Source of the DNA: Climacium dendroides | Taxonomy: Eukaryota; Streptophyta; Bryopsida; Hypnales; Climaciaceae | DNA: 64,000 nt | Direction: 5' to 3' | Assembly: GCA_950106755.1 (NCBI GenBank) | Contig: OX467083.1 | Coordinates: forward strand, 20,765,029 to 20,829,028 | Shown here: positions 3,831-29,215 of the stretch, one piece after another | Layout of the letters: each line of letters starts with the position of its first letter | Position numbering within the stretch: the first letter of the stretch is position 1 | The notes under the pieces: model-generated | What the model was told of the DNA's origin: nothing | Seen by the model: only the letters and a program-made list of their open reading frames with translations | The model's database searches: none | Program-made: the position numbers and the translations under genes

Positions 3831-5413
3831 AATTAGATGCAGAAGTAGATCTTTTTATTCATGCTCCAAGCTTTAGCTTTAACGAAGTGAAATGTCTTCT
3901 TTAGAGTAGTATCTTGAAGCTCAAATCCAATTAAGACATGAACATAGCTCTAAACTGTGGGCGCTAACATATAGCTAAACACCTTTGGGTGATGTGTTCC
4001 AATGGGGTTTTATTTAAGAAGTGTAGTGAGACTAAAAGGGCCACTATTCAATTTCAATTTATCCCATTTATGTTGTACTAGCAAGTGTTCTTGCTCGTCT
4101 TCAACCTTCTAGGATGATTAATGTATATCTCTCACCATTGAATGTTCATATAGGGCCGTTGATATTGTTAATGAATGAATGCCAAAAATTTAACAATGGC
4201 CTTATCCTGAACCCTGTCCAGTTCAATTGACCTTGCCAATATTCAATTTTTATAGCGAGGATGGTAGGACAACGGAAGAAAGTGATGCATAAGGTGACCA
4301 CCAAAAAATTGCCTTTTGGTACCGAAAGGCAACTCAAGGATCAAACAACTATGTACTGAATGGTTTTCTAAATTTGTGAATTGACCAGAACTTGCTATAG
4401 TGCATAATCCATTTCAAATGAGCACCACCTCATTTTTACATTTTGGCACTGTAGGGGGTTAACTTCTCATGCATTAAAGATGAATATTGATTATCTACGG
4501 TGTAGTTGCTAACACTGTTGTAGCACATAATGATTGGCTACAAGCTTGTCAATATTGCAACTAGGCCTTAGTTGTAAACCAAAGACCTATATGACTACGA
4601 CGGGTTGAACCCAATCTTCAAGTACAAAAGAAGTGGTAATTTTGTTTTAAGAAATAAAATTTGAAGCGAATATGGAATTGCCCTAAATATTATTTTTGTG
4701 CATGTGTAAATTTGTTCAACCACTATATCAACATTTTTAATATGCTAAAGTGCTTAAGTGGTAAGAAATGGATTGCCACCTTCATGCATTCTCACTCTAT
4801 TGCATAAAAATGTTAAACTAATCTTACACATTGCAATTACAATTGTTCAACAATTAGAACTCCAACGTTCAAGTAACCATTGAAGCACTTCAACATAAGA
4901 ACATCAGTGTACAATAGAATATGAAGATGTACATCCAACAATAAGTAATTTCTATGAAGCTTAGACTTGAAATCCTACATCCCAAATCTTGAATCCTAAA
5001 AATTTTAAAGGACATACAGTAAATACAAACCAAAGTCAATAGACAATGTTCAATACCACATTTCCTTGCAACCCTAATTGTATGCTCTTGTTTAACCCTA
5101 AAAGGATAAACTTGAGGTCTTAGACCCATAAGTATATTGTAGCATTAGATAATGGTTATAGGTTTATGGTCACATCTTAAATCCATGGTGGTAGGATATG
5201 ATTTGGGTTTTGGGACCACAGTCATAGGTTAATGCCCCCCTCTAAATCTACGGTGAAAGGATATATTTCTGGTCTTGGGATTATAGTCATAGGTACCCAT
5301 CCATATCCTATGTTTGCAATGAAACCTCAAGTTTGTGGTCTTGGATGCACGGTGATAGGGTCATAGGGCTACTACCATGGTCATAGGTACATTAACATAA
5401 GATTCTTGTATTA
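3831..5413. other. Intergenic AT-rich DNA with a weak local repeat
   Basis: No gene recognised. Between about 5150 and 5400 a degenerate unit of roughly 65-80 bp recurs about three times, each containing a variant of 'agtcataggt' followed by a 'ggatatg...gg' block. Confidence 0.4.
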
Positions 5414-5421
5414 TACTTCCC
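5414..5421. repeat. Left target-site duplication of giant hAT element
   Basis: TACTTCCC directly before the left inverted end. The mate at 23892-23899 is CACTTCCC, 7 of 8 identical. An 8-bp duplication is the known hallmark of hAT insertion. Confidence 0.75.
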
Positions 5422-5520
5422 CAGGGTTGTCATAACGGGCGAGTTAGGGTTGTCGGACATCCCGGACGGATGGGCAAACCGGACCAGACGGACGGACGGT
5501 CCGGACCAACTAGACGGCTT
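5422..5520 (+). repeat. Left inverted terminus and subterminal GGACGGA cluster
   Basis: Starts CAGGGTTGTCATAA. Within the next 85 bp are GGGCGAG, CCGGACGGATGGGC, ACCGGAC and tandem GACGGACGGAC. The right terminus carries the same words (CGGATGGGCGAG, CGGACGGACGAG, ACCGGAC). Subterminal clusters of this kind are where hAT transposases are known to bind. Confidence 0.7.
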
Positions 5521-5579
5521 TAATTTTTCAAAGTTGTGGAATTTTTTTGAATGACACGTCACCTCAAACAACGAATCCA

Positions 5580-5760
5580 GGGCGCGAACGTCACCGTGCC
5601 ACCGTAAGGGCGTGGACTCGTGAAGTCAGGGCGCAGACTTCAGCGTGAGCGTCAGGGCATGGACTTTAGCGTCAAGGCGCGGACTCGTACACTTAGGGCG
5701 CGGACTTCACCATGAGTGTGAGGGCGCGGACCTCAATGTCACAGACAGGGCGCGGACGGA
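5580..5760 (+). repeat. GGGCGYGGAC motif array, left end
   Basis: About eight copies or near copies of GGGCGCGGAC (for example at 5697, 5724 and 5747) spaced by 10-20 bp of variable CTTCA/GTCA-rich linker, in otherwise AT-rich DNA. This is the same motif as in the arrays near 10920, 11340, 15180, 15600, 19905 and (inverted) 23590. Confidence 0.75.
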
Positions 5761-6168
5761 TAATCAGGTAATGGTGGATTTTATTTATGTGTTCTACAAT
5801 ATATGTAATATATATATACATATTTTTTTTGAACAAGGTAATGACCCCACTGCACTTAAAAGAACCAGTAACTACAATATATTTTACATGATTGCACTCA
5901 CCAATGTTTCCAACATGCACGTCAAATACAAAAATGCAAAAAAAATAATAGTAGGTTGCAATGTTTGTGATAACCAAAACTGTTTATAAAATTCATGCAT
6001 TGCAAAGTACAATAACAATACAATGAATCTATACTTCCAAAATACACCCACTTTCTCATAGGTTATCTAAGACAATCCTTTGGCTTCTCGTCCATCTTTC
6101 TTCCAATTGCTACAATTCTCTTCAACTCTTAAAGACCCAAGATCTACCATCGATGCAACTCTATAACC

Positions 6169-9100
6169 TCAATTATTCAAACGACTTGACCTACGAACTT
6201 CTTGGGCACCTGGATCCGCTGCATTAGCATCTCGAATGACAACATCATCATCCTCAGGTGCCTCGTCATGGGCATCTTCGTTGCTATCATATTCATCTTC
6301 TGCTTCATCACTGTCTGTGGTCCAATGTCCTTCAACTTCCGAGTTTTCATTTCGAAGTTCTACAATAGTTTGACTTTGACTACGTTTGCGCTTCAACCTC
6401 TTATGTCGTTGTGCGTGGGAATCTTTTGCATCTAAATTTATAGTGGGCCCACCTGGAATTGTAATTGTTGGAACAACAAATGCCGGGGTTGACCCACTAG
6501 GTCCTGGTACGTATGTACTTAGGAACGGTTCTACCACCCTATTTGGATCTCTTGCCCCAATTCCGAGAAGTGGATGATTAGTAGGCCTTGATGATGATAC
6601 TTCTCCAATTTGTTGACCTTCTGTTTGTCCACAGCCTCTAGTCCCTCCACGGCCTCTAGTCCCTCTAGTCCCCCCACGGCCCAGCCCTTCCACAGCCTTG
6701 TTGATATTGCCCTACTTCATGATGAACGGAGGGCCGAGGAGCTATAGGTGGTCTACCCCCAGTAGTACCACGTGAAACACTTTGATGAGTCAAATGAACA
6801 TTGCCCACTGAGCCTAACCCTTCTTGAGAAGGTCTTCGGATGGCATTGGGAGTTGTTATTGAAGATGGGTCTACGAAATGTGGCGTTTGTGTACCTTGCT
6901 CTGAAATAGCAGGATGGCCTGCAATTGGAGCAAGTACACGGGCAAGGTCTTCTGCAGGGTCCACAAATGCAAAAACATCATCAGGGTCCACACGCTCTGG
7001 ATCAAAAGGCCTTCTCACATTACCATCCGGTTGATTTCTTGCAATAGGGCGTGCCACTCTTGCATTTCTAACGTTTCTGTCATGGTGTCCTTGAATAGTT
7101 CTAATGTTACGAGTTGATGGCCTCACTCCCGTAAGCCCTATATTGCCATCTCGATTGTGAGAAGATCCTCCACGATTTGGATTTGCATTCCTCTCCCTAT
7201 TTCCGTCGCCATCTTCATTTCCACCACCATTTCCATTTTCACCGCCATTTCTTGGAGGGAGGTTGTCATCATCGTCGTTGTTGTTATGGGAAATACCATC
7301 ATCGACGTTATCGTCATTTGGATTGTCGGTCTCTAAAGAAGACGACAAAGCTTGGACTTCAGCATTCCCTTCATTTTGAGGAAGTGGAGGTAAAGGATGG
7401 CGACGTGGATTGGATGGAATGGGTGGCCCCCAAGGACCCCAACGACCATGAAGGAGTTCCTCCTCTCCATCGTCATCATCTCCATAGTAGTTCCTCGCTT
7501 CCTCGAGGTGATCGGCTCCTCGCCTCCAAAGATCTAGGTTTGACGGATACTCTTGAGGGTTTAAATTGGCTTCTCCATCAACCTCTTCTTCTTCCTCTGC
7601 TTGCATTGCGTCGAATTCTCGATTGCGTTCATTCACCGGGATTGGACCAAGGGCATCTGAATCGGAATCCTTCGAGTATATATTTGCATCGTACCAACGA
7701 ACTGGATCGGCTCCTGGTCGCTGCTGAAGTACACGGCTATTGGTATAAATATATACCAATGACTCTGCCTTTTCGGGGGCTAATCACTAGAAAAAAAAGT
7801 AGGGTTTTGCGACTGCGGTTTGCGACTGGTTTGTAGTCGTATCGGACGTTTGCGACTTGGTGATATTCTGGAGTCCGCAGTCGCAGTGGACAAGTCGCAT
7901 GAGTTGCACTGCAGTCGCGAGGTTGTTTGTCATTCGATAGGCAATGGAGAACTTCGTCGATGAACTGCTGTGACGTGGTTGCTGATGTGGAAGTTATTTC
8001 ACTTATTTGTGTGCAATTGGTTTGCGACTAATGTGCAACTGGTTTGCGATTGACATACAACTGGTTTGCAACTAGTTTGCGACTTGGTTATAATTTATAG
8101 AGTTGTAGATTATAGAAATCTACAAATTGTAGAAATCTACAAAGTGTAAAAATCTACAAAATATATAAATATTAGAATTTCACTATCAAAATTCATTACA
8201 CAAGAATGCTATAACTTACCATTCTTATCTGTTCAAGCTGATGGTATTCTTGACAATCGATATGGGACAATTGAATCGATTTTCAGTCATGTTCTAGTTG
8301 CATTGCACTTGTTCTCTAGTTGCATTTGAATCGTTTTTTAGTTGCACTGTAGTCGGGCTCTAGTTGCATTATAGTTGATTCCTAGTTGCATTTGAGTCAT
8401 TTCTAAATTGCAATCTTCTAGTTTTTAGTTGCAGCCTGTAATCAGAGCGATTGCATTTTTCCACGGTGGACTCTACTTCGCGGATAGCTGTCCACATGGA
8501 CAACTGTGATGAATACTGAATGTAGAATACCTCATGTCAGTTCTTCTGTTACAATATCGTAACCCTATTCTTCATTTTCTAACTACTTTGCGACTACAAC
8601 TACATACACGTGAAATTTGGTGCAAATACAGAGGGCTACAGTCGCATCTCAGTTGTATAGGACACGTAGTCGCATCTCAGTGGGTTGCAACGGACACGTT
8701 TTTCTTCTAGTGAATCGATTTCGGACCTTATTGTGAACAAATGAATAGTTACTCCAATTCCTTTCACAAAAGTTTGCGGAACATGTGAGGGATAAAAGAC
8801 GTACGACAATTTTAGAAAGAGCCCGATCTCCAACCCTATGCCACCATTGGTGGAGAAGCATTTGTGTCACACAGATGTTGGGTGTCTCGGCTGCATTGTA
8901 TGGTCCAGTATCCTCTTCAAATTGTATTAATTCCGCCAGCACATCATCGAAATCCACACCCACTGAATCTGCCATCTTACGGATGACTTTGTACAATGCA
9001 CGTAGGGTAATTCCATCCACTCTGAGCGCCACATTATCCAAGAGGTATGGATTCAAAAGGGCCGTAGCGTAGTGTGTATCTTCAAAAGCCATCTCCCACC

Positions 9101-10636
9101 TTTCATTGAAAGATTCTTCCAAAGTGACTGCTATATCATCACGTAAGCTGAAAGGTGGTTCTCTTAAAGAATACACGTGCCCTCGCAAATTGTGCATTAT
9201 GAGCCACACCCGATCCATGGCTGGTTCTCGTCCATCAAACACACGCAAAGCCTTCAATACGTCTTCAGTCATGTACACGTAATTCATACATCGTTGCCAG
9301 AAGGCCACATCTTGAATGGTGTTTCTGACATTACGTGCAGCGGTAGCTGACTGCGGGCCATTTTGTTCGTTCCGTAAGGTATCAAAGTAATTTAGAACAC
9401 GTGGGTGGTTATTCAACCGCTCCAAGACTGCTCTGAGTCTCACCAGGCGCTGTAACATGAGGAAATTACAAGCAAAGCGGATTTCAGTAGGCACTACGAG
9501 TTGTAGATTCGGACTCAACTCACAGAAATCCGACATGGTCGCATGATGGTTTCGAATGAATTGGCACAATCTTTTTGCCCTGACAATCAAATCGGCAAAT
9601 TCTTGGATTTTGGCCCAATCTTCCAATATGAGATCCAATGCATGTGCCATGCAACCTTGCGCAAAAATTTGCGGGTATGTTCGAGTGATGTCTTACAATG
9701 CCCCAAGCATGTTTGCTGCATTATCTGTGCACACTTGTGTCACATATTTGGAACCCACCTTCTCAATGTACACTTTCATTTGGTCCGCTATGTAGCGCAT
9801 GGTTTTCTTTTGTGAGGTAGTATCAATCGATCCCAAAAATACATCACCTGTGGGGCATGACATCATTACATTCATGAGAGGCCTCCGATTGACATCATCC
9901 CAACCATCGCTACATATCGTCACCCCGTAGTGCTTCACAGCAAAACCAACCTTCTCCTCAATCTGCTTCTTGATTTGCAACCTCCTCGGTTCAATTAAAT
10001 TAGTCCTGAACTAATGGTAAGAAGGTGGACTATATTCAAACCTCGCCAATGAAGTTGCCTTCACAGCCTCAAAGAAGGCTGGATGCCTTACCACATTAAA
10101 TGGCACATTCGCTTCATAGAAAAAACTTGCCCACTTCTCATCCAACTCCTTCCTCTTTGCAATGTTGAATGCGTCCACCATACGCTGCTGACGTAATGAT
10201 CCAGATCTCGTAGAATTTGATGCAGCAAGGCTATTGGACGTTTGTAGGGTTTCATTTCCTTCTGAAACGTTTGCCCCTTCTTCGCTCTCCCACCATTGAC
10301 CCCATCCGTCACCTCATTTTCTGTGGCTTCACTTGAACTTGCAAGTGGAGTTGTTCTAGATGGCGCACTTTGAATTGATTCTCCTTCATACATGTCCCCA
10401 GGATCCATTCGTAGCGGGACAAAACCTGCACAATTGGCAAATCTATGGCGCACTACACGAGGCATACTTCGACAAATTGACCTCTCTGATTTTGAGCCAT
10501 ATCCGAAATGTGCAAAAGCATGCTCACGTTTGTAACTGAAGGTCCCAGCACAAAAAACACAAGTCACCTTCGTCCCATTCTCCGCAAAGTTTAGCCACGG
10601 TTCCCATTCCTTACTTTGCTTCCTTTGACTTGCCAT
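6169..10636 (-). pseudogene. hAT transposase (BED, DUF659, hAT dimerisation) with long acidic C-terminal extension, disrupted
   Basis: The chosen start is the ATG at 10636 (MASQRKQSKEW). Just after it is a BED-type finger (CVFC, then HAFAHFGYG). A frameshift near 10250 leads into a DUF659-type block (GVTICSDGWDDVNRRPLMN; VCTDNAANMLGA) at about 9980-9696. The catalytic core and the C-terminal dimerisation block (CSANFCERNWSNYSFVHNKV) lie at 9650-8715. A CACTA element (7785-8712) interrupts the codon after VRNR; the frame continues beyond it with APEKAESLVYIYTNSR. A tail of about 530 residues follows, rich in Asp/Glu/Asn. It shifts frame once near 6690 in a GRGG-rich stretch and ends RRSSRLNN. 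In-frame stops are at 10011-10013 (TAG) and 9693-9695 (TAA). In hAT elements this protein binds the ends and excises the element; this copy cannot be functional. Some of the breaks could hide introns. Confidence 0.85.
7785..8712. mobile_element. Non-autonomous CACTA element nested in the hAT transposase gene
   Basis: Ends are CACTAGAAAAAAAAG and, inverted, CACTAGAAGAAAAACG, flanked by the 3-bp duplication AAT (7782-7784 and 8713-8715). Subterminal DNA on both sides is full of short TTTGCGACT / AGTCGCA repeats in both orientations, the typical CACTA (En/Spm) pattern. No transposase is encoded. Insert plus one duplication is 931 bp, and its removal restores the hAT reading frame across the site. 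Confidence 0.9.
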
Positions 10637-10895
10637 TCTGTTCAGCCGTTCACAAATAATTTCAAATGTCTTCCTCCTCCTTTGTATTGAAGTTAAAAAG
10701 ACCAAAGATATACCGAACAAAGTATCAGTAACAACAGTTAGCGCTAATCCACTGCTTGAACTGATTTTGACATCACCTCAACAGCAAACTAGGGCCATTT
10801 GCCACCCAAGTAGACTCACAAGGAGCTCAAAATGAATTGAAGTCCAAGAGATAGAGGCCAGGTGACAAATGTGGGGAATGCTCGGTCTTCTTTTT

Positions 10896-11110
10896 CTATA
10901 TATACTTAGGGAATGCAGGGGCGTGGACTTCATCGTTGTGCGTGCCAACAGGGGGCGGATGCACAATCTGAGAATTTGTGAAGGACGTTCACAATGCACA
11001 CTTGAATTCTTGGCATCAGGGCGGGTATAGGAAGGTAGGGCGGGTACAGGAAGGTAGGGCGTGGACTTCAGGGCGCGGACTTCAGAACAAGGCGCGGACT
11101 CCAGGGCGTG
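10896..11110 (-). promoter_or_regulatory. Putative transposase promoter: TATA box plus GGGCGYGGAC array
   Basis: On the minus strand a TATATATAG sequence lies at about 10896-10906, some 260 bp upstream of the chosen ATG at 10636. Immediately beyond it (10918-11110) is a cluster of GGGCGTGGAC / GGGCGCGGAC motifs. The same TATA-next-to-array layout recurs at the other two genes of the element, so the array is probably a shared control region. Function is inferred. Confidence 0.5.
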
Positions 11111-12452
11111 ACACCATTACAGAAATGGGGGTGCGCACATGGGGATGCACTGAAAAGTAGGTTGACCTCCGGCATAGGATCCCTCCTTCCTATTTAATGG
11201 TCTTGAAAGATGGTGTCCCTCCTTTTCATGGAGAAAGGGAAACATTAAATGCTGACACACCTTGTTTTGGATTCCTCATATTTGTAGGGAGAGAAGTTGG
11301 TAAAGTTAAACATACGTTTTTGCTGAATGGGTTGTGTTAGGGCACGAACGCAGGGCGCGGACTCCTAAGCGAACAATTCACAGAGGCGGAGGAACTTGAA
11401 AGAGCACAACTGAATCACAGACTCCATGGCTTGGAGTTAAAATCAGGGCGCGGACTTGAAGTCAGGGCGTGGACTCCAGGGCCTGAACTTGAAGTCAGGG
11501 CGCGGACTCCAGGGTGTGGACTTGAAATCAGGGCGTGGACTTGAAGTCAGGGCGTGGACTGCAAGTCAGGGCGCGGACTGCAAGTGAGGGCGTGGACTCT
11601 AGGGCGCGGACTCCAGGGCGTGGACTTGAAGTCAGGGTGTGGACTCCAAGGCGTGGACGTGGTCGTCCAGCACAGGAGGCATGACTTTGAAATGCGCTTG
11701 GGCTTGGCATCCTTCAATCCATCCTATTCTTGAAGCGGGTGAACCATTAATTTCAGCCTCAACAACTTGTTTTGGATTCCGACAAGTCAATGAAAGCAAG
11801 AGACCAAATTAAGAGCTCCACGGACTAAGATTTGGAAGAAACTTCATGGAAGAGCATGTCCCATCGTTGTGGTGGAAAATGTTTCTCCTTACTTCTTCTA
11901 ACACTTCAAACTACTTTGAACCAACATATACTTTAGGGTGTAAAACAAAGACTCTAAATTCTTTGATTTAGGAAATGGTTAGAACACTTTGAGGAAATAT
12001 TTTGGAAATGTTTTGAAAATGTTTAGGCAATATTTTGAAAATGTATTGTACTCGATAAAAATCATTATTTTCCTATTTTTCTTGCTTCATTAATTAGAGA
12101 AATTTTTCTATTTTTTTACTCCAATCCTAAAATTCTTTTATTCCAACTCATTGTCATTCTTTTTTTTGGTGAATCATTCCCTGTCTATTTTTGTTGGCTA
12201 TATTCCTAAAACTCTTTCATCCTAAGTCAATGCCATTTTTTATTTGTTCCATCATTCCCTTTCCTATTTTTTCCATGAATTAGGAAAGCTCTCCCATCCC
12301 AACTCTATGCCATTCATTTTAGGTTGGATCATTCTCTCTCCTATTTTTTTTGCTTCAATCCTAAAACTCTCCCATTCCAACTTGTATTTTTTTTTTCTTT
12401 TGGTTGAATAATTTTTTTTTCTATTTTGTTCCTAAAACTCTCCCATCCCAAT
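11090..12452 (+). repeat. Internal direct repeat, copy A
   Basis: Matches 15350-16536 in the same orientation (offset about 4086 bp). From 11675 on the two are almost identical over roughly 780 bp; before that they differ by motif-array length and scattered substitutions. The copies diverge where the T-rich satellite begins. This indicates a relatively recent duplication inside the giant hAT. It includes a GGGCGYGGAC array at 11340-11670. Confidence 0.85.
11340..11670 (+). repeat. GGGCGYGGAC motif array, copy A
   Basis: Around fifteen near copies of AGGGCGTGGACT / AGGGCGCGGACT separated by short linkers such as TGAAGTC or CCAGG. It is longer than the matching array of copy B (15600-15745), so the unit number is unstable. 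Confidence 0.75.
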
Positions 12453-13200
12453 TCATAGTTCCTTTTTTTTCCCTAAATTCATTCCCTTTCCTTTTTTTTT
12501 GGGCTTCATTTCTAAAACTCTTCCATCCCAACTCAAAGCCAAATGTTCTGTTTTGGTTCTATCATTCCTTTCCCAATTTTTTGGATTATTCCTGAAACTC
12601 TCCCATCCCAATTTATAGTTCTTTTATTTGGGCTTGAATCATCTCCTTTCCTATTTTATTTTTGCTAATTTCCTAAAATTCTCCCACCCCAACACAAAGC
12701 CATTATTTTTTTGTTCCATCATTCTCTTTCCTCTTTTTTTTGGTTTCTGCTTCATTCCTAAAACTCTTGCATCCCATCTCCATGCCATTTTTTTTGGATT
12801 CATCAACTCCTTAAAGTCTTAAACACTTCCATTTCAAGTCAATGCCATTTGTTTTTGGTTCCAGCATTCCCTGTCCTATTTTTGGGGCTTCATAAATTCC
12901 TAAAACTCTTGTATCCCAACTCCATGCCAATATTTATATGTTGAATCATTTGCTTCCCTATTTTTTTTGTTTTCCTATTTTTTTTTCTTCATTAATTTCT
13001 AAAACTCTTTTATTCCAACTCCATGCCAATTTTTTTTGGTTTTGTCATTCCCTTTCCTATTTTTTTTCTTTGCTTCATTCCAAAAAATCTACCATCTTAA
13101 TTCATTGCCATTCTTTATTTGTTGAATCATTCCCTTTCTTATCTCTTTTGCTTCACTAATACCAAACTCTTGCATCCCAACTCAAACATAAATTTTTTTA
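12060..13200 (+). repeat. T-rich degenerate satellite array
   Basis: A unit of about 70-85 bp repeats many times: CCTAAAACTCTYCCATCCCAAC, then a 'tcaatgccat' word, a T-run, 'tgaatcattccctttcc' and another T-run. Open frames here are low-complexity artefacts. The same family recurs at 16146-17110 (same orientation) and 22360-23160 (inverted), only inside the giant hAT. Confidence 0.75.
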
Positions 13201-13239
13201 TGGTACCAAATTGGAGTCTTTGCATTCACTTCCCATTTC

Positions 13240-14175
13240 TCATATAAAAAAATAGGTAATGAAAAACAAGATTTGTTTCATAATTTTTTCACATTTGTTT
13301 GCTTTGATTAACAACATTTAAAATGCACTTACACTCCAATGGATTGACATTCCTTTCCGTTCCATGTATGGTATATGGGACATTTAATTAGGGGGCAAAA
13401 GCATTTTTTTTTATTTTTTTCTTCACAAGAAAAACTCTTCCATTTAACTCAATGTCTCAATGCCATTTTTTTCTCTTCACATGTCATAAAAAAATAGAAC
13501 ATCAAAAAAATATGAAGTTAGTCTAGCAATCACCTCAAAGCCAAATTTAACTATTTAAGGGATAGGGTTGAGGGTTTAGATTTAGGTTCACTCACTCACT
13601 CCATCCCAACTCCATTCCAACTCAATGATAAATATTTTTACAATACCTTTCCATTCTCTTCACATGTCATAAAAGAATAGATAATTAAAAAAATGAAGTT
13701 AAAGGCCATCACATGCATTAGAAAATGAAGAATGGGGCAAAAGACTCTTTAAAAAAAGGAAAATAGGTGAAACAATTTTTTCTATTGGTTTAGTTCCCAT
13801 TTTTTTATAAAAAAGAATTGTAGGGCCTTACATCGGATCCTACCCTTGGATTCCCTACTTGCCTTTAATTCTCTTCCTTGGATTTGTTTCTCACCATTTT
13901 CCTTTCCTAGAATTATATTTTAGCAAAAAAGCAAATTCAAATATTTGTGTTTGGGATTTAGGAATTTAGGCTCCAACATTTTAACTTGTAACTAAAGTTT
14001 TGAATCATACCGATGATAAATTTACAAAAGTTTGGGTGACACCATCCCTCTTTGGAGGCATTGAATTTCAAAGAACTTACATTCGAAGTCAATGCCAATT
14101 TTTTGGGTTAGATAACTTGGAAGGGAACCATTTCTAAAAAAATAGCTAGAAGGGATTGTTCTTGAATTGAAACTT
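13240..14175. other. AT-rich interior of the hAT element, no gene seen
   Basis: No coding frame recognised. Scattered degenerate pieces of the T-rich satellite vocabulary ('caatgccat', 'ccatcccaactcc') are visible, so this is probably decayed satellite DNA. Confidence 0.4.
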
Positions 14176-14178
14176 AGA

Positions 14179-14381
14179 CACTACAAGAGAAAGGGGTGTT
14201 TTAAGTATAGTCCTAGTAGTATAGTCTTTTAAGTAACAACCTTTAAGTAAAATTTTTAGTAAAATTTTATTGAAAAGACTGTCTTTTCAGTAAAATTTTA
14301 CTAAAAACCTTATTTAAAAGTCATTACTTAAAAGACAATACTACTAGGACTATACTTAAAACACCCCTTTTTCTTGTAGTG
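14179..14381. mobile_element. CACTA-type MITE (203 bp)
   Basis: Begins CACTACAAGAGAAAGGGGTG and ends with the inverse of CACTACAAGAAAAAGGGGTG. The arms stay complementary for about 60 bp. It is flanked by the 3-bp duplication AGA (14176-14178 and 14382-14384). It has no coding capacity, so it would need a CACTA transposase supplied from elsewhere. It is nested inside the giant hAT. Confidence 0.9.
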
Positions 14382-14384
14382 AGA

Positions 14385-15170
14385 TCTTCCATTTTTTTGG
14401 ATTCACGTGAAGGGACTAATATTTGAAAATGCTTCGTACGAGGGGTTTTTTTTAACGTAATCTGTAAGTTTCATTCTTTTGAATTCGTTATTCTTAGAAA
14501 GAGATTCATTCTTGAACAATTTCACTAATAGAGATTGTTTCTGAATGAGAACTTAGAGCTTACATTATTTTGGATTCACGTAAAGAGATTCATTTTTGTA
14601 GATACTTCATGCTTGTTACAAGTTGTTTTTTTAAGAACTTCAAAGTTTTGTTTACTTAGATTCACGTGGAAGGGAGTCAATTCTCAAAAGTAATTGATAG
14701 ATTGAATTTTATTAATGAACCCATAGGTTTTATTTTTTCAAATCCATTATTCATAATTAAGGATTCAATTTTAGGCATATTAACTACAATAATAATCTTA
14801 TTTGGGAAACGAGAAATTACAAGTTATATTTTGTTCTAAACGTAAAGGGATTCTTTTTTTTAATACTTAGCACAAGGGACTCTTTCTTAATTAAACATAC
14901 AAGTGAAATTGAAATAGAGTGATTGTGAATGCCAATCCACAATTATGAATCATTGCTACAAGAAATTCATTTTCACATGAACTTACAAGTTAAATTGATT
15001 TCGATGCATGAGAAAGGTTCTTTTCTAAAGGTAATTGCTACATCGATTTGTTATTTTATCTACCCTAAGCCATTAACTCAAACCCTAAACCCTAAACCCT
15101 AACGCTGCACTCTTGAAAACCTTGCCCATGATAATTCAAAAAGTTGGAGGCTGCAACTTCACCGTGCTGG
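14385..15170. other. AT-rich interior of the hAT element, no gene seen
   Basis: Repeated words such as 'ggattcacgt' plus 'aaggga' suggest a decayed local repeat. No coding frame recognised. Confidence 0.35.
15080..15103 (+). repeat. Short interstitial plant-type telomere repeat
   Basis: Three consecutive CCCTAAA units (minus-strand TTTAGGG), the plant telomere type. Too short to be a functional telomere; it may be a repair scar or chance. Confidence 0.5.
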
Positions 15171-15179
15171 CGCTACTCA

Positions 15180-15400
15180 GGGCATGAACGTCATCATAGG
15201 GCGTGAACTCCAGGGCGTGGACTTCTAATGAGGGCGTAGACTCCAAGGCCTGGACTTCAAGTGAGGGCGTGGACTGGAAGTCAGGGCGCAGACTCCAGGG
15301 CGTGGACGTCATCAGAGGGCGTGGACTCCTGAACAGGGCGTGGACTCTAAGGCGCGGACTTCAGGGCGTGACTCCACTATAGAAATGGGGGTGCGCACTT
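15180..15400 (+). repeat. GGGCGYGGAC motif array upstream of direct-repeat copy B
   Basis: About ten near copies of GGGCGTGGACT / GGGCGCGGACT, including variants GGGCGTGAAC and GGGCGCAGAC, starting just after the short telomere-like run and continuing into direct-repeat copy B. Confidence 0.7.
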
Positions 15401-16536
15401 GGGGATGCAATGAAAAGTAGGTTGACCTCCGGCATGGGATCCCTCCTTCTTCCTATTTAATGGTCTTGGAAGATGGTGTCCCTCCTTTTCATGGAAAAAG
15501 GGAAACATTAAATGCTGACACACCTTGTTTTAAATTCCTCATATTTGTGGGGAGAGAAGATGGCAAAATTGAACATATGTTTTCGCCGAATGGGCTGTGT
15601 CAGGGCGCGGACTCTAGGGTGCGGACTTCAAGTCAGGGCGTGGACTACAAGTCAGGGCGCAGACTGCAAGTGAGGGCGTGGACTCTAGGGCGCGGACTCC
15701 AGGGCGTGGACTTGAAGTCAGGGTGTGGACTCCAGGGCGTGGACGTGGTCGTCTAGCACAGGAGGCATAACTTTGAAATGCGCTTGGGCTTGGCATCCTT
15801 CAATCCATCTTATTCTTGAAGCGGGTGAACCATTAATTTCAGCCTCAACAACTTGTTTTGGATTCCGACAAGTCAATGAAAGCAAGAGACCAAATTAAGA
15901 GCTCCATGGACTAAGATTTGGAAGAAACTTCATGGAAGAGCATGTCCCATCGTTGTGGTGGAAAATGTTTCTCCTTACTTCTTCTAACACTTCAAACTAC
16001 TTTGAACCAACATATACTTTAGGGTGTAAAACAAAGACTCTAAATTCTTTGATTTAGGAAATGGTTAGAACACTTTGAGGAAATATTTTGGAAATGTTTT
16101 GAAAATGTTTAGGCAATATTTTGAAAATGTATTGTACTCGATAAAAATCATTATTTTCCTATTTTTCTTGCTTCATTAATTAGAGAAATTTTTCTATTTT
16201 TTTACTCCAATCCTAAAATTCTTTTATTCCAACTCATTGTCATTCTTTTTTTTGGTGAATCATTCCCTGTCTATTTTTGTTGGCTATATTCCTAAAACTC
16301 TTTCATCCTAAGTCAATGCCATTTTTTATTTGTTCCATCATTCCCTTTCCTATTTTTTCCATGAATTAGGAAAGCTCTCCCATCCCAACTCTATGCCATT
16401 CATTTTAGGTTGGATCATTCTCTCTCCTATTTTTTTTGCTTCAATCCTAAAACTCTCCCATTCCAACTTGTATTTTTTTTTTTCTTTTGGTTGAATAATT
16501 TTTTTTTCTATTTTGTTCCTAAAACTCTCCCATCCC
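15350..16536 (+). repeat. Internal direct repeat, copy B
   Basis: Second copy of the block at 11090-12452, same orientation. It includes a shorter motif array (15600-15745) and the same downstream single-copy stretch (15761-16150) with only a few differences from copy A. Confidence 0.85.
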
Positions 16537-17110
16537 ATTTCATAGTTCATCTTTTTTTTGTTGAATCATTCCCTTCTCTATTTTGTTTTTGCTTATTTCT
16601 TAAAATTCTCCCATCCCATTGATCCCAATTCCAAAATTCCCAACTCAAAGCCCTTATTTTATTTTTGCTTATTTCCTGAAGTTCTCCCAAAGCCAATAAT
16701 TTATTTTTGCTTATTTCCCAAAGTTCTTCCACCCCAACTCAAAGCCATTATTTTTTTGTTCCATCATTCTCTTTCCTTTTTTTGTTTTTGCTTCATTCCT
16801 AAAACTCTTTCATCTCACCTCAATGCCATTAATTTTTTTTGTAAATCATTCATTTTTTTTTGTAAATCATTGATTAGCGAAATAGATCCATCTCAACCCA
16901 AGGCCATTTAATTATTGTATTCCCTAAACCCATTCTTTATTTTTGGGCCTTGATTTGCAAGATTATTCTATCCCAACCGAATGCCATTCATTTTCTTGCA
17001 TACCATTCCTTCCCAATTTTTGGCTTTTATCCATCATTCCTTTGCCTATTTTGCAATTAAATACGTACCTATTTGACTATTTTCATCCCATTTTTTTTTG
17101 GGTTCCATCA
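16146..17110 (+). repeat. T-rich degenerate satellite array, second block
   Basis: Same unit family as 12060-13200. The first part is within the nearly identical direct repeat; beyond 16536 the units are diverged. Confidence 0.7.
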
Positions 17111-17496
17111 TTCTTTATTTCCTTTGCATATATATATATATATATTTCCATTAACAACATTTCAAAAGCGTTTTTTCCTAGTAAATGACATTTGTGGTCC
17201 TTTTCTAACTTTATTAATTGATTTGTGTTTGGGAATGAATTGTACTCCAATTCAATGACATTTAATTTCATGGTATAAATAATTTTAATGTGTATGAAGT
17301 GGACAAGTCGTTCCAAATGAGTACGTGCAAAAAATGAACGAAGTCACTTTGGGCAAAACCATTCAAAACAAAATCATATATATTTCATATGCATAGTGTA
17401 ATACAAAGTAGGAAAGTATATAAGCCTATATAATGCTAGGAAAGTAAGTCTTCTAAGAAAACCTAAGCTCACTAGCTAAAACACTCTAAACTGTAC
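17111..17496. other. 3' flank of the RING gene, no feature seen
   Basis: AT-rich, with a short TA microsatellite at about 17130-17144. It probably contains the 3' untranslated region of the minus-strand RING-type gene. No poly(A) signal was assigned. Confidence 0.35.
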
Positions 17497-19802
17497 TCAG
17501 TCCATGTTCATTGGACTGCTTGCATTGTCACTTGGTCCAGCCTCATTGTCATGTGTCCTAGCGCGGACTGGAAGGTCTTCATTTGAGCCCAAACAAAGTC
17601 TACGAACTGCGGATCGGGTTTTCCTTGCTGGTTCGTCTTCCTCTAATATAGCCCTCAATATTTGTGATTGTTTGAGGCTCTCAAGACATTGCAGAGTTCT
17701 TGGGCTATGTTGTTCCATCAAATAGTCCATCCCTTCATCTTGAAAGGTTTCTCTCCACTCTGACTCTGATAGTAGTACAAGTTCAGCTGGGTCTGGCATG
17801 TCAATGTCTCCCCCAATATGCATGCTTTGGTCATCAGTAATGCGACGTTTATCAACGCCCCACAACCATCCACGAGGATGAGGGCCAAATTGGAAGTATT
17901 GTCCAACCTCATTCCAATGCCCATTGAAGCATTGGAAAAAGAAATTCCATCGTCCTTGGCTGAAGTTGTCCTTTAGTGGAACCAAGTGGTGGCACACCTC
18001 GACAATTTTAGATGGATCTGTTTCCCAACCCCATTCGGTACAAAGGTGTTGTTTGCCCAACGAATGGATGTTCAGTTTCTAGCTCCATACCAAGTCAGTT
18101 CCCCACTTCGACGAATGATCAAGCGCATTTTTTTCATTGTATTCCCAATGCGGTGGCATGTAGGGAACTAATCCAAACAACTCATACAAACGCTCATGGA
18201 AAGGAGCCTTGCACAATGAACAACGTCGGCGAACAATCATCAAGCTAATTAGGCAGAATGGATGGTACAAATGTTCGCACGTGCCTAGGCGCATTCCACC
18301 TTCCGGACCAAATGGATTAAGGCAAATGGGACATGTAGTTCCATCATGCACGAAGGTTGAAGGGTTTGGCCACAGTAGTAATGGATTCATTAGATTGCCC
18401 TGATGGTCGACGGCAGTGCCAACTTGATTCTTGAAATTCCAACCATGTTTGGACCAATCGATGGTTGTTGGTTGACCAGTACTGTCGATGGTCGCCATTT
18501 CATCCATGCTGAAATGATCATCCACCAGAGCCCACGATGTCAATCCAAAACCCCTCTCCTGATTGTGTGCATCGTAATTGTGGTCAATTTTTTTGAATTC
18601 TTCCACCATTTGCCTAGTCCTGTCAACACTGAAGACGCATGCCATCTTCCATTGATAATATTGCTCCATCAACGCATGCAATTGATTTTTCAATCTCAAA
18701 TTCTTTGCAAGCGTGTCCGTCAGTTGGGTGCTTTGGTCAACAGGCATTGCTGCAACTTCATTCGTGGGTAATTCTCCGAAGGACAATGAATCATTTTGAG
18801 TATTCATTGTTGCACCAACTTCTGCATGTTCCAATGGAATTTGAGAAGTATTCAAAGGCCCTTGTACTTCCCCTTGTAGATCTTGACCAGCATTAGCCAT
18901 TGTTGCTGCCTGGAGAGCGTGTCGAAGTGCCTCCATGTCACGTTGTTGTTGATTGATGATGTTGTCCTTCTCTTGGATTTTTCCCTCAATTTGTTAATAT
19001 CATTATACAAAAAACGTAATTCCGCATTCTTGTCATTCACTTCGGTCAACAAACTCTGAATTCGGTTTGCAACAGCTATAACATCGACAACTCCTACTAC
19101 TGGTTCGTCCATAGGTGGCACCTGTTCTTCCACAACATTTTCAGGTAAAACCTCAGCAGTTGCACGCGCAGCCCTTCTCCTTTTAGCACGTTGTTGTTGT
19201 GTTCTATGGCTGACTGGAACTACCACACGAGATCCATCAGAGTCGCTGTCCGTAGATGAGTCCGGAGTCTCATATGTTGGTGGTGGTTGAACTTGTGTAG
19301 TTGTTTTCCCTAGACCACCTTCCGGGTATCTTTTTATCCCCCTTGGAATGAATCCATTTGCTGGGGTAGGAATATTGACATCTTTTCCCATTGTCTTCAA
19401 AGTTGACCAATCCACTCTCTTGTTCAACTTCACCTTTGCATGGACCCCTCGTGCAATGAAAAGATGCACTTCATTGCGCAGGACGGTCGCGACATCATAC
19501 AACACTTGAACCACCTCAATGCATCGGGTCGTGAACTCCTCGTCAAGGCAATGTTTCAAATTTGCCTTGTGGAAGCGTCTGTGGAAGTTGTGGCGCTCTT
19601 CTGGGAAGACCTTGTCAATGTGGCACCACTCGATGTAATTGGTGCAGTCATCAAAGGTCCATGGATCAGGCACGTCCTCCCACCCCTTGAATGCAAGCTT
19701 GGCTGGGTTACGTAGAACATGTAGTCGCTTACGATGTTTATTTCCTGGTCGAAGTCGGGTCTTGTCTCGTTCCTCCTTGGTCATTCTTGGTGGCGTAGCC
19801 AT
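17497..19802 (-). pseudogene. RING-H2 finger protein, cargo gene of the hAT element, disrupted
   Basis: The chosen start is the ATG at 19802 (MATPPRMTKEERDKTRLRPG). The N-terminal part is basic (KHRKRLH), followed by an Asp/Ser-rich linker and a basic RAKRRRAARA stretch. A likely coiled coil (LLTEVNDKNAELRFLYNDIN) is broken by a frameshift near 18990 and continues in another frame (DNIINQQQRDMEALRHALQ). A RING-H2 finger follows at about 18333-18200: CPIC, then CEHLYHPFC, then CSLC, the full C3H2C3 spacing. An in-frame TAG at 18079-18081 precedes a C-terminal region of about 190 residues with many Trp and acidic residues. RING-H2 proteins usually act as E3 ubiquitin ligases; that role is family knowledge, not shown here. 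It is divergent from the kinase gene and shares its promoter. Confidence 0.8.
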
Positions 19803-19904
19803 TTTTGCAGAAAAAATCGAAAACCTCCCACGTGGCAATCAAGAGGACCCCGCACAACGCTCACAACCAACTCAATGAAGAGGTGGAAGGCTGAGAGTAT
19901 GCAG

Positions 19905-20182
19905 GGCGGGGACGAATGGGGCGGGGACGGCTTTATATAGCGGGAGGTGGGGTACGCCAGGGTGCGGACGCCATCGATGCGGGGGCGCGGACGTCAAACC
20001 AAGGCGTGGATGCCATCGATGTGGGGGCGCAGACGTGAAGTCAAGGCGTGGACGCCACGTGCCAGGGCGCGGACATCATCGCGATTGGGGCGCGGACGTG
20101 TGGGAACAGGGCGGGGACGTGAAGAGATGGGGCGGGAACGCGAGAAGATGGGGCGTGGACGTGAGGGGGGGGACTATATAAA
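19905..20182. promoter_or_regulatory. Bidirectional promoter: GGGCGYGGAC array between two facing-away TATA boxes
   Basis: A minus-strand CTATATAAAG at 19931-19940 serves the RING gene (ATG at 19802). A plus-strand CTATATAAAG at 20174-20183 serves the kinase gene (ATG at 20375). The interval between them is filled with about twelve copies of GGGCGCGGAC / GGGCGGGGAC / GGGCGTGGAC spaced 15-25 bp. The two TATA sequences are identical including neighbouring bases. Divergent transcription from one array is inferred from this geometry. Confidence 0.65.
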
Positions 20183-20374
20183 GCGAGTCCCCGCCCTTAT
20201 TTTTTTGCCAAGTCCGTGCCTTATGCCTCACACGCTAGTTCTAACGGCCTATGCAAGTGAGTTTGGTGGGTGGTGGGCTTGGCCCGCATATGTGATCCGG
20301 TTTTTTTAAATTTTTTTTGAACTTCCGTGCTTGGGGAGAGATACAGAGACCCATCGTATAAAATATTCTTCATT

Positions 20375-21952
20375 ATGACAGGGGAAGGGAGTGGATCGGC
20401 GGAGAAACGTCCCATGTTCATAGATTTGGATGACGTCGGTGAGATGGTAATTCCATCCACGAATACATTGGTGGCCTCAAGTTCATCGAATCCTTCCTCA
20501 TCGGGCCAAAAGAAGCGCAAGAAAGCACCCAATCCCCATATGTCTCCACACGAATTCATAGTTGAAGGGAGAGCAATAGTTGTGGTGTTCTACACTCGTC
20601 GAAGTACAACTATGTTGACTAGGGAGTATGTGGTGCACAATGAAGAAGGATACCACAAACTGACGAGGGACCTGCGAAGGGAGCTGGAGTCCAAATTTGA
20701 ATCATCAGAGAAATTCAACAATTTCTCTGATTATTGGTTGCACCAAGACTGGCTAGATAAACAGGTGGTTGCCTTCACAACCAATATAGTGTCAAATTAG
20801 TGTTACCACACGAGGAAGAAAGAAGATGGTAGCGATTGGGACACGCAGAATAAAGAGGTGGTTGCAAAGTTGAAAATCATTCAAAACTTCGCTCAACAAT
20901 TTTCTTCATCGCGTAAGAAAAAACAAGCACCATGGAAAGCAACAATAGAAGACGCCATAACGGCTCATTGTGTGAGTGGAACATTCAAGTGGCTTGAAAG
21001 TACAGTGAAAGTCATCCCCATGCCGGACAATAGTGCGGTTGGTTCATATGGGACCGTGAGGAAGGTGATGCTTACAAAACTTGAGAGCATTCCTAGTTGG
21101 ATATTTTTTGCTGGGAAGAGCTTGAAAACCACAAATGAAAAGGAGAAGCGCCAAAGAATCATCAATGAGGCGGGAGGGTGTCTAGTGATACATCCTGGCA
21201 TCATTCAAATTGTGTACATCCGCCCTAAAACGATGGAAGGCTATACCCTATGGTAGAATGGAGGATCTCTAATTTCTTTCTTATCCAAGTACAATTCGAA
21301 AGTGAACGAATCAGTGGATGTGGATGACATTGAGCGTAAACAAGGTACGCTGCTGACAAAAGAAGAGCTTGCATGGGTTGCAACTTACCGAAGGAACCGA
21401 GTGAACTTGGCACTCTCTTTGCTTGTCATTGTGGGGAAATGCCATGATGCGCAGTACATGCACAACGACATAACTCCATCCAATGTTTTGCTCCATTTTG
21501 ATAATTGGAAAGAGCACAGGGTGTACATAGGGATATGTGATTGGGGACTTTCTAGCCGAGTTGTAGAGGAGTCATCAAGGCATGGCTTTCCCAACATGGA
21601 GACTCTAGCGAAGGAAAAGAAAAAGCGAAAGTTTGCAGCCCCTGAGTTGTTTTATGTATACAGAGAGCAAGATTCAGCTAATTCAATTGAGGCCATGCAG
21701 AAAACGCATTTGTATTCCATGGCAGCTGATGCATATGCGGCGGGATGGATAGTAGCTGCAATTTGGCAAGAGGAGTGGGACCCCAAATACTTTACAACGA
21801 AGAATCCAGAGCAATATGTGAACCTCAAGATCAAATTGAGAAGCCTCATGAAAGATGATGTGAGTGAAAGGGCGACAATGCAAGATGTTCTGGACACATT
21901 GAAGAAGGCCCCCCACTGTTGGACTATGCCAGATTATTGTTATCGTACATAG
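20375..21952 (+). pseudogene. Protein-kinase-like protein, cargo gene of the hAT element, disrupted
   Basis: The chosen start is the ATG at 20375 (MTGEGSGSAEKRPMF). The N-terminal half, about 210 residues, has no recognised domain; it includes a basic KKRKK stretch. Kinase motifs follow in order: a glycine-loop-like GSYGTVRKV (about 21038), a catalytic loop HNDITPSNVLL (about 21461) where canonical kinases have HRDxxxxN, a metal-binding CDWGLS (about 21535) in place of DFG, and an AAPEL (about 21640) matching APE. Both key Asp residues are present, so a catalytic ancestor is plausible. In-frame TAG codons at 20798-20800 and 21254-21256 interrupt an otherwise continuous single frame of 525 codons; no intron is needed. 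The family within the kinase superfamily is not recognised. Confidence 0.8.
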
Positions 21953-22359
21953 TATTTAGTTTTTTTAATTTTTGTAGTTTTCCATATAATTTAGGCATAG
22001 AAGGTAAACCATCCTCGTAGAGGACCATGTGTACATACTTGACAATTGCGAAACATCTCAAATATATATAAAATCGGATGTATTCTCTACTCAAAATGTC
22101 ATAATATATTAATATGCCATATCATTGTTCTTTCTCATTGCATTTTTATTTTTTATGAATTCTATGAGTTGATGGTAAAACCTCTACAAAAACAGTGAAT
22201 GCAGTAGTTTGGTATAAAAATACATACACTGTATTTTTTCAGTAGGTCTATGTTTTTGTTTTTGTTTTTTTGAACAAATGGAAAAAACAATGCATTAAAA
22301 AAATAGGTCTATGTTCTAGAAGTTAATGAAGCCCCCCCTCCAAAAGAAAGTAATTGATC
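21953..22359. other. 3' flank of the kinase gene, no feature seen
   Basis: AT-rich, no coding frame recognised. It likely includes the 3' untranslated region. Confidence 0.35.
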
Positions 22360-23160
22360 CACCAAAAAAAAGAATGACATTGAAGTAGATTGGAATAATT
22401 TTAGTAATGAAAAAAATAAATAAAAGGATAGAGAATGATGGAACAAAAAAATAAGAATAATGGCTTTGAGTTCAGATGGAATAACTTTAGTGAATTAGAA
22501 AAATAAAATAGGGAAGGGAAAGAGTGAACAAATAAAGCAGAACTATGAGTTCGAATAAAATAGTCTTCCTAATTAATGAACCAAAACAAAATAGAAATTG
22601 AAAATTTGGAATGTTAGAACATGAAAATTGTCCATTTCTTTCAAAAAAAAATGTTCAAAAAGAAAAGAATAACTATGAGTTGGGATGGGAAGAGCTTTGT
22701 TCATTAATGGAAAAAAAATAGGAAAGGAAATGATGGAACAAATACAAAATGGATTGGGCTTGGGTTGGAACAATTTTGTGAGAGAGAGAAGCCCACAAAA
22801 AATAGTGTGTCAAAGTGATTTCAACTAACAGCCCCAAAAAATTACCATTTAGTTCAAATAGAATTGGGATACCACAAAAAATAAATGGAATTCACTTGGG
22901 ATGAAAGAGTTTTGCTATGGAGCAAAAAATGAAAGGAATGGGAATGATCAACGAAAAAGAAATGGCCTCGGCTTGGGATGGAACAATTTTACTAATCACG
23001 GAAAATAAAATAGGAAAAAAAAGTCATTCCACCCTACACAAGTGGCATTGAATTCAAATAAAAGACTTATGGTAATGATGCCAAAAAAATAGGAAAGAGA
23101 ATGATTCCGCCCAAAAAATAATGGCAGTCACTTGGAATGGAAGTGTGCTTTAAAAATCTA
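22360..23160 (-). repeat. T-rich satellite array in inverted orientation
   Basis: The reverse complement of the units at 12060-13200 and 16146-17110 ('gggatggaa...tttagt...gaaaaaaatagg...gaatgatggaaca'). The giant hAT therefore carries opposing arrays on its two sides. Confidence 0.65.
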
Positions 23161-23234
23161 TGTCCAAAAGGGGAGATGGGGTGACCAAAGCTTTTGAAAA
23201 GCATACCAATTTATTTTAGGGTGGCCAATTATTT

Positions 23235-23570
23235 TGAAGGAGTTATATAATCTAACATTAAAAGAAATATGAATGGTGGAGTGCTTTCGAATATGGAAAT
23301 GCTTTGGATGTCAGTGTAATATAATGTAACACCCAAAAAATTTATGGAATGGTGGATTGGTGGAGTGATTTGGACGTGGAAGTGGTTTGGGTGTTACAAA
23401 CTTATAATGAGGTAATTTAACACCCCGCAAAAATATGGAATGATGGATTGATTAGGATATGGAATTTATTTGGGTGTTACAATGATATGATCTAACATTA
23501 AATAAAAATATGGACTGTTGTAGTGACTTGGAATATGGAATATGAAATGGAAATATGTAAAAAGCATATT
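23235..23570 (+). repeat. Tandem repeat, about four units of 75-95 bp
   Basis: Units start TAACACCC or CTAACATTA, contain 'atatggaatg-tggat-g' and end 'tttgggtgttacaa'. They are diverged from each other. No coding. Confidence 0.6.
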
Positions 23571-23589
23571 AATTTAGTATATTTATTAA

Positions 23590-23725
23590 ATCCCGTCCGC
23601 GCCTTGACGATGGCATCCGCACCCTGACGATGGCGTCTGCGTCCTAACGATGGCGTCCACGCCCTGACGATGGCATCCGCACCCTGACGATGGCGTCCGC
23701 GCCCTAACGATGGCGTCCGCACCCT
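23590..23725 (-). repeat. GGGCGYGGAC motif array, right end (inverted)
   Basis: Seven regular units of about 20 bp reading GTCCGCGCCCTGACGATGGC on the + strand, that is GGGYGCGGACGCCATCG(T) on the minus strand. Orientation is opposite to the left-end array, so the two ends of the element are symmetrical. Confidence 0.8.
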
Positions 23726-23811
23726 GCATGTTCCAGAATCCATGTGGCATCCCAGTGGCATCCACGTGGCCTATTTTTCCATTTTCATAAAGTCAACTTT
23801 GTGTTGACTGT

Positions 23812-23891
23812 ATCGGATGGGCGAGCCCTCTAACAGACAGACGAATCGGACGGACGAGTGAACCGGACGTCCATCCATTATGACAACCATG
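23812..23891 (-). repeat. Right inverted terminus of giant hAT
   Basis: Reads inward (minus strand) CATGGTTGTCATAATGGATG, then CGTCCGTCCGATTCG and GCTCGCCCATCCG. It matches the left end over the first 14 bp except one base and shares its subterminal words. Followed directly by the duplication CACTTCCC (23892-23899). Confidence 0.75.
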
Positions 23892-23899
23892 CACTTCCC

Positions 23900-29207: not shown

Positions 29208-29215
29208 GGTGTATC

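What the first reader, a model, noticed from the sequence alone, without database searches (positions are those of the whole stretch)
5422..23891. An 18.5-kb composite hAT transposon carrying a RING-H2 gene and a kinase-like gene
Inverted ends (13 of 14 bp) and an 8-bp flanking duplication (7 of 8) enclose a hAT transposase and two protein genes with no known role in hAT transposition. hAT elements are normally a few kb and carry only a transposase. A hAT carrying ubiquitin-ligase-type and kinase-type cargo, with dedicated promoters of shared design, would be a new kind of cargo transposon. The cargo could help it control host silencing or its own transposase, or could be captured host genes.
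Basis: partly seen in the sequence, partly recalled or inferred. Interest (0 to 1): 0.93.

Follow-up and report, generated by a model that had tools for sequence, protein, structure and literature searches.

The report
Three-gene hAT transposons in a moss
This moss genome holds many large jumping genes that carry, beside their own jumping enzyme, a protein-tagging (RING) gene and a kinase gene that have travelled with them for a very long time, which suggests plant transposons can keep standing helper genes, perhaps to escape silencing.

Summary
The finding holds. Window 5422-23891 is one hAT transposon of a dispersed family (genome 412.6 Mb, a moss by its LEAFY sequence). Of 39 other scored places per end, 36 left matches start and 33 right matches stop within 3 bases of the predicted ends. 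Of 18 places with both ends (this one included), 14 have transposase, RING-H2 and kinase genes in the same order. All 10 other copies fetched whole carry the trio; 7 have perfect 8-bp duplications, 3 none. Six unoccupied copies of the target repeat have one target site at the junction. The 18.5 kb is a ~13.4-kb element plus a 0.93-kb CACTA-like insertion and ~4 kb of internal duplication; this copy's genes are broken. A divergent copy and a second family (41% transposase, 32% RING, 31% kinase) carry the same trio, so it is old. Catalytic residues are conserved and older variants show constraint on all three genes. A short repeat, largely confined to the first family, is arrayed at both ends and before the genes; the second family has another repeat there. 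Most likely (inferred) the accessory proteins serve the element, perhaps as a VANC-like anti-silencing system. My literature searches showed no such plant hAT.

The parts
5414..5421 (.). left target site copy (TACTTCCC)
5422..5435 (+). left terminal inverted repeat
5579..5735 (+). left subterminal array of the RGGCGYGGAC-type repeat
6169..10777 (-). hAT transposase gene region (DUF659, Dimer_Tnp_hAT); broken here by at least two in-frame stops, the CACTA-like insertion and probably frameshifts
7785..8712 (.). nested non-autonomous CACTA-like element (CACTAG...CTAGTG, TSD AAT), not part of the family
10918..11660 (+). repeat array upstream of the transposase gene
12103..13208 (.). ~80-bp degenerate T-rich repeats, non-coding
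14179..14381 (.). nested 203-bp palindromic MITE, absent from copies E17a and E37a
15179..17000 (.). second copy of the array and T-rich block (internal duplication)
17500..19802 (-). RING-H2 gene (N-terminal helical domain, coiled coil, RING, C-terminal part); one in-frame stop and one frameshift in this copy
19959..20197 (.). repeat array between the divergent RING and kinase genes (shared promoter region, inferred)
20375..21952 (+). protein kinase gene (525 codons), two in-frame stops in this copy
22341..23157 (.). inverted copy of the T-rich repeat block
23594..23726 (-). right subterminal array of the repeat, inverted
23878..23891 (-). right terminal inverted repeat
23892..23899 (.). right target site copy (CACTTCCC)

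Best explanation
The window holds one aged copy of a large hAT transposon family whose standard gene set is transposase, RING-H2 protein and protein kinase. SHOWN: the unit moves as a whole (shared ends, 8-bp target duplications, unoccupied sites for this copy); the trio keeps its order within the family and in a divergent copy, and recurs with a permuted layout in a second family; older variants in all three genes have fewer amino-acid changes than a neutral model gives; a repeat largely confined to the family is arrayed at both ends and before the genes. INFERRED: the RING and kinase proteins serve the element and not the host. Most likely one element protein (the transposase, or the RING protein through its conserved N-terminal domain) binds the arrays, and the RING ligase and kinase then remove or inactivate host silencing factors there, so that the promoters and both ends stay accessible: a hAT counterpart of the VANC system of VANDAL elements. 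My split: element and trio about 0.97; trio serves the element about 0.85; anti-silencing specifically about 0.4.
For: Ends and copies. Unoccupied sites. Divergent copy D with the same order and strands (largest transposase piece 53%, five pieces 41-72%; RING 47%, kinase 55%). Second family F: one copy of 14.4 kb with TSD AATACAAG on both sides and the same trio; 13 of 13 F-type transposase rows have a convergent kinase within 5 kb, 12 of 13 have kinase and RING in order, 59 of 66 RING rows have a divergent kinase within 6 kb. Kinase Lys, His-Asn-Asp, Asn, Asp-Trp-Gly and Ala-Pro-Glu invariant in 10 sequences, nine of window type and one of F; seven RING metal ligands invariant in 22 sequences, one of them F. 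Variants shared by two or more of 12 copies: non/syn 37/27, 74/47, 124/67 for kinase, RING, transposase against neutral ratios of 2.28, 2.68, 3.03. Repeat: 710 exact matches of a 15-base form in the genome, 0 for the reversed control; of the first 100 listed, 94 lie within 15 kb of a family feature (1.5% of C1 does) and all 97 within 30 kb agree in orientation. The F copy has none of that repeat but arrays of another.
Against: No expression, methylation or binding data. No DNA-binding domain was recognised in the RING protein; its model is only fair (mean pLDDT 63), and no PDB structure matched at E <= 0.001 (top rows RING fingers). Arrays of subterminal repeats also fit plain transposase binding. 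The divergent copy D has only 10 repeat hits in three places and none between RING and kinase. Distances of the three genes do not correlate across 12 copies (Mantel r 0.20, 0.33, 0.01; none significant), so co-descent rests on linkage and deep homology. Singleton variants are near neutral, and some stops are shared by copies (5, 2, 5): most copies are decaying. No significance test was run on the ratios. Three of 10 fetched copies lack a recognisable TSD, and none was seen in the second F copy. Many transposase, RING or kinase rows stand alone in the clustering.
Confidence: 0.6

Rival explanations
1. The accessory proteins regulate transposition itself and not silencing: the kinase phosphorylates the transposase or host repair/cell-cycle proteins, and the RING ligase sets transposase turnover. 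The arrays are transposase-binding sites that double as auto-regulated promoters.
For: Arrays lie at both subterminal regions as well as before the genes, as in hAT Ac and CACTA elements (recalled). Kinase and RING diverge from an array region in the window family and the F copy, and are divergent genome-wide in F, which suits a matched pair.
Against: No direct evidence for or against; simple hATs transpose without such helpers (recalled).
Confidence: 0.3
2. Passive capture: host RING and kinase genes were picked up once and merely hitchhike.
For: Many copies have broken frames; plant transposons often capture gene fragments (PMC8903248, abstract start only).
Against: Complete genes kept together in two families at 31-41% identity; catalytic residues invariant; fewer amino-acid changes than neutral among shared variants; D against the window family has mean dN 0.36-0.40 with dS of 1.7 or more, or not computable, in the six of 12 pairs printed. 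No closer host gene appears in the lists, but those lists are capped.
Confidence: 0.05
3. The RING-kinase pair is a selfish survival device, kept because its loss harms cells that lose the element.
For: Divergent pairing of two signalling enzymes in both families.
Against: Nothing specific supports harm; many decayed copies are tolerated.
Confidence: 0.04
4. The interval is several unrelated insertions that happen to lie between two similar ends.
For: A nested CACTA-like element and a MITE are present.
Against: 14 of 18 two-ended places have the same gene order; unoccupied sites.
Confidence: 0.01

Closest known systems
VANDAL/VANC anti-silencing system of Arabidopsis (PMC5735166; passages seen, parts of the abstract among them)
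   Same: Plant DNA transposon with extra genes; short family-specific motifs in dense arrays of one orientation in non-coding parts; related families have different motifs.
   Different: VANDAL are Mutator-like (PMC13317346, passage); VANC is not a RING or kinase protein (recalled); VANC's binding and demethylation were shown by experiment, here nothing was.
TET+ hAT7 transposons of rust fungi (PMC12730594; passages seen, parts of the abstract among them)
   Same: hAT elements with a standing accessory gene, thought to help escape methylation.
   Different: TET/JBP dioxygenase instead of RING and kinase; 7-bp TSD; fungi; the gene moves between transposon superfamilies.
IS3EU transposons with alpha-kinase genes (PMC12730594, one passage)
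   Same: DNA transposon with a kinase gene near the transposase.
   Different: Other superfamily, alpha-kinase, fungi; the word RING does not occur in that paper's main text.
ToxhAT of wheat pathogens (PMC6737239; passages seen, part of the abstract among them)
   Same: ~14-kb element with hAT-like transposase and several further genes between inverted ends.
   Different: Composite of at least two transposons, no target duplications found, other gene content.
Pack-TYPE / gene-capturing plant transposons (PMC8903248, listing with abstract start; PMC13317346, passages)
   Same: Plant class II elements with non-transposase coding DNA.
   Different: Pack-TYPE are non-autonomous; here complete genes stay beside a transposase across families.

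Membership tests
hAT superfamily | 8-bp target site duplication | tested here: met
   7 of 10 fetched copies 8/8, 3 of 10 none, window 7/8 with empty-site support; one F copy 8/8, the other none seen
hAT superfamily | short terminal inverted repeats, CA...TG ends | tested here: met
   CAGGGTTGTCATAA / CATGGTTGTCATAA
hAT superfamily | transposase with hAT dimerisation region | tested here: met
   window piece 18.5 bits, under the 21.4 cut-off; intact relative of family F 35.6 bits, over it, with DUF659 134.7 bits
hAT superfamily | BED-type zinc finger at the N-terminus | tested here: inconclusive
   Pfam found no family in window:10088-10777
RING-H2 E3 ligases | eight-ligand RING with C3H2C3 spacing | tested here: met
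   seven ligands invariant in 22 sequences, the other mostly H or C, once D; sequence profile matches RING-H2 fingers in the PDB; Pfam score just under cut-off
RING-H2 E3 ligases | ubiquitin ligase activity | not testable with these tools
   no assay
eukaryotic protein kinases | kinase domain with Lys, HxD, DxG | tested here: met
   PF00069 36.9 bits, cut-off 31.7; residues invariant in 10 sequences
VANC/VANDAL | Mutator-like transposase | tested here: not met
   transposase is hAT
VANC/VANDAL | motif arrays in non-coding regions largely confined to the family | tested here: met
VANC/VANDAL | accessory protein binds the motif and removes methylation | not testable with these tools
   needs experiment
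Pack-TYPE elements | non-autonomous, without transposase | tested here: not met
   transposase and full-length RING and kinase genes present

The most novel reading that the evidence does not exclude
Mosses host an ancient clade of 13-14-kb three-gene hAT transposons that carry their own signalling kit, a RING-H2 ligase and a kinase aimed at element-specific repeat arrays, and this kit is a protein-degradation-based anti-silencing system that evolved independently of VANC and whose target repeat changes from family to family.
Probability: 0.35. Interest if true: 0.92.

Novelty: new variant of a known kind. Interest (0 to 1): 0.8.

Why it matters
Plant hATs are usually taken to be one-gene elements (recalled). 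Here a RING ligase and a kinase are standing element genes, in dozens of copies per family, in at least two families that parted long ago. How transposons fight host silencing is known in detail for few plant elements; this offers a second, unrelated candidate system with named genes, candidate target repeats and copies with open frames, in a plant group with good laboratory genetics. It also warns annotators: dozens of 'RING' and 'kinase' genes in this genome are transposon genes.

Tried and rejected
Relatives in viral contigs (RING and kinase alignments) and genome contigs (kinase alignment): none confirmed. Protein database: 37 RING relatives, 8 and then 44 kinase relatives, mostly on short contigs without an organism name, several on contigs over 100 kb; the one named record ('Bacilli bacterium' MAG) I take for contamination. 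Host origin of the two genes: not resolved. Mantel test of co-descent inside the window family: not significant. Simple NG86 omega (means 0.45, 0.57, 0.68) is not used as proof, because a C-to-T-biased neutral model already gives 0.61, 0.74, 0.90. Kinase fold model poor in the N-lobe (mean pLDDT 63); the 50 PDB rows shown were kinases or a pseudokinase. Transposase rows of about 53-60% identity: only one (C41:1111110) was looked at, in two short stretches; no kinase or RING finger was found there, only a piece like the RING protein's N-terminal domain; the others were not read. The stand-alone N-domain search did not complete. Seven of the 17 other two-ended places were not fetched. Loci L029 and L030 were fetched but not analysed.
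Full report
OBSERVATION. The ends at 5422 and 23891 are as described. In the window alone the terminal motif is not beyond chance (7 matches, 7.02 expected). In the whole genome (412.6 Mb, 123 contigs) it is decisive: a probe of 5400-5800 gave 50 rows at 40 places, and 36 of the 39 other places start at query 20-23; a probe of 23511-23911 gave 46 rows at 40 places, and 33 of the 39 others stop at query 380-383, two of them through split rows. Only 40 of 227 and 40 of 248 candidates were scored, so the family is larger. For the clustering below I kept one row per place and so dropped 10 and 6 split rows.

TRANSPOSITION AS ONE UNIT. The window's flanks are themselves a repeat. Joined across the element, with one target copy, they match six other places nearly end to end at 84-89%; four more places match across the junction in part at 84-90%, and ten weaker rows do so at 65-67%. 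I read the six: each has one target site at the junction, exactly CACTTCCC in 2 of 6 and with one or two changes in 4 of 6; all six have C at the base where the window's left copy has T. So the mismatch in the window's duplication is a later change in the left copy. Of 10 further copies fetched whole, chosen from the 17 other two-ended places, 7 have perfect 8-bp duplications, each different; 3 have none.

SAME THREE GENES. Own-genome searches gave 85 kinase rows (82 of 729 candidates scored), 87 RING rows (86 of 667) and 118 transposase rows (117 of 1186; the lower rows belong to other hATs). Clustering by position and orientation: 18 places have both ends, the window's included; 14 read left end, transposase, RING, kinase, right end; one lacked the kinase by that probe but has it by tblastn; two are short end pairs without listed genes (8.1 and 3.4 kb); one has another order. 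A further 14 clusters lack only the right end and 8 lack only the left end. Against this, 46 clusters are transposase only (13 of those rows are family F, below), 13 kinase only and 12 RING only; 62 of 85 kinase rows have a RING row within 10 kb. All 10 fetched copies carry all three genes in the same order and strands.

LENGTH AND STATE. Four fetched copies span 13.2-13.5 kb end to end. The window copy is longer by a 928-bp CACTA-like insertion (7785-8712) inside the transposase gene and about 4.1 kb of extra array and T-rich sequence; its 13.2-15.2 kb stretch is shared with copies E17a and E37a, without the 203-bp MITE. In the window the frames are broken: at least two stops plus the insertion, and probably frameshifts, in the transposase; one stop and one frameshift in the RING gene; two stops in the kinase. 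Some other places have matches without stops.

AN OLD TRIO. A divergent copy on C1 (D, L031+L032) has the same order and strands, with transposase 53% over its largest piece (41-72% over five pieces), RING 47% and kinase 55% identical. A second family, F (C41:6684000-6710600; another copy on C38), has a 1027-aa open transposase 41% identical over the same piece, a kinase at 31% and a 686-aa open RING protein at 32%. The two F copies are alike at 93.6-95.6% over three blocks covering about 14.4 kb. The C41 copy has AATACAAG on both sides and ends TAAGGTTGTC / CAGGGTTGTC; no TSD was seen in the C38 copy. Its layout differs (transposase, then converging kinase, then RING), but kinase and RING again point away from each other, with arrays upstream of each. 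For linkage in F I used all 66 RING rows, the 77 F-type of 118 kinase rows and the 13 F-type of 118 transposase rows: 13 of 13 transposase rows have the kinase, 12 of 13 have both in order, 59 of 66 RING rows have a divergent kinase within 6 kb, and 59 of 77 kinase rows have the RING. Identity falls in the same order for all three genes (D nearer than F), as expected of shared descent.

SELECTION. Lys, HND, Asn, DWG and APE of the kinase are invariant in 10 sequences, one of them F; seven RING ligands are invariant in 22, one of them F. In 12 copies, variants shared by two or more copies have non/syn ratios of 1.37 (kinase, 37/27), 1.57 (RING, 74/47) and 1.85 (transposase, 124/67), against 2.28, 2.68 and 3.03 expected from the fourfold-site singleton spectrum; singletons are nearer to neutral (1.86, 2.24, 2.36), and 5, 2 and 5 stops are shared (no significance test was run). 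D against the family: mean dN 0.36-0.40; dS 1.7 or more, or not computable, in the six of 12 pairs printed per gene. So RING and kinase look about as constrained as the transposase, and present copies are mostly decaying. Distances of the three genes do not correlate among these copies, which neither supports nor excludes exchange between copies.

REPEAT ARRAYS. RGGCGYGGAC occurs 13-40 times in each of the 11 two-ended copies read and 0 times in the 45.4 kb of window outside the element. In all 11 it lies at four or five places: left subterminal, upstream of the transposase (one hit only in E41a), between RING and kinase, right subterminal in inverse orientation, and in the duplicated block of two long copies. 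A 15-base form occurs 710 times in the genome, 0 times reversed; of the first 100 listed, 94 are within 15 kb of a family feature, where 1.5% is expected on C1, and 3 are more than 30 kb away. D keeps the core but has 10 hits in three places, none between RING and kinase. The F copy lacks it and has arrays rich in GACGG/CCGTCGA upstream of kinase, upstream of RING and at both ends. This resembles VANC targets: dense arrays in one orientation, in non-coding parts, differing between related families (PMC5735166).

PROTEINS. The RING protein has a confident N-terminal helical domain (about 24-144), coiled coils, a RING and a C-terminal part. The profile matched RING fingers in the PDB, besides weak coiled-coil matches; the fold search gave nothing at E <= 0.001. 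A piece like the N-terminal domain also lies alone beside the transposase in D (132-aa ORF) and near a 59% transposase on C41, which makes it a candidate recognition module (inference). The kinase has an N-terminal helical region and a protein-kinase domain.

HOST. One of five LEAFY-type matches is followed by an exon that aligns over 65 residues to chain 4bhk, 'Floricaula/Leafy homolog 1', with three differences, two of them at the ends of the alignment; I recall that chain to be from Physcomitrium patens. I infer a moss.

LITERATURE. Ten searches, eight of them on this question and two on precedents. Four found no paper with all or enough terms; in the others no listed title or abstract start describes hATs with RING and kinase genes. 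The library is open-access PMC only. Nearest precedents are under Closest known systems.

JUDGEMENT. A real, old kind of multi-gene hAT. Its function is open; the arrays and the enzyme pair make element-specific anti-silencing the reading I would test first.

Noticed in passing
L031:6792-7187 and L046:1416-1754: A stand-alone gene or remnant like the RING protein's N-terminal domain, without RING, sits next to the transposase in divergent relatives.
   Followed up: partly
G000:C35:445159-448923: A transposase 46% like the window's and a kinase 37% like family F's lie about 2 kb apart: probably a third lineage.
   Followed up: no
G000:C39:4400000-4583600: Five kinase rows, with RING and transposase rows, recur about every 44.6 kb: a tandem amplification holding an element copy.
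   Followed up: no
window 5200-5421 and 23900-24121: The element sits inside another dispersed repeat with at least six unoccupied copies (84-89%) in the genome.
   Followed up: partly
window 45700-47000, 55450-57300, 61100-63350: Long direct repeats (92-95%) holding similar small, proline-rich, secreted-looking reading frames (my reading), outside the element.
   Followed up: no
window 29215-30087: Two palindromic elements with ends like CATGGTTGTCATAC, close to the family's right-end sequence; possible related MITEs.
   Followed up: no
G000:C1:34269661-34277744 and C1:40118465-40121872: Short end pairs (8.1 and 3.4 kb) without the three genes by probe: likely deletion derivatives.
   Followed up: no
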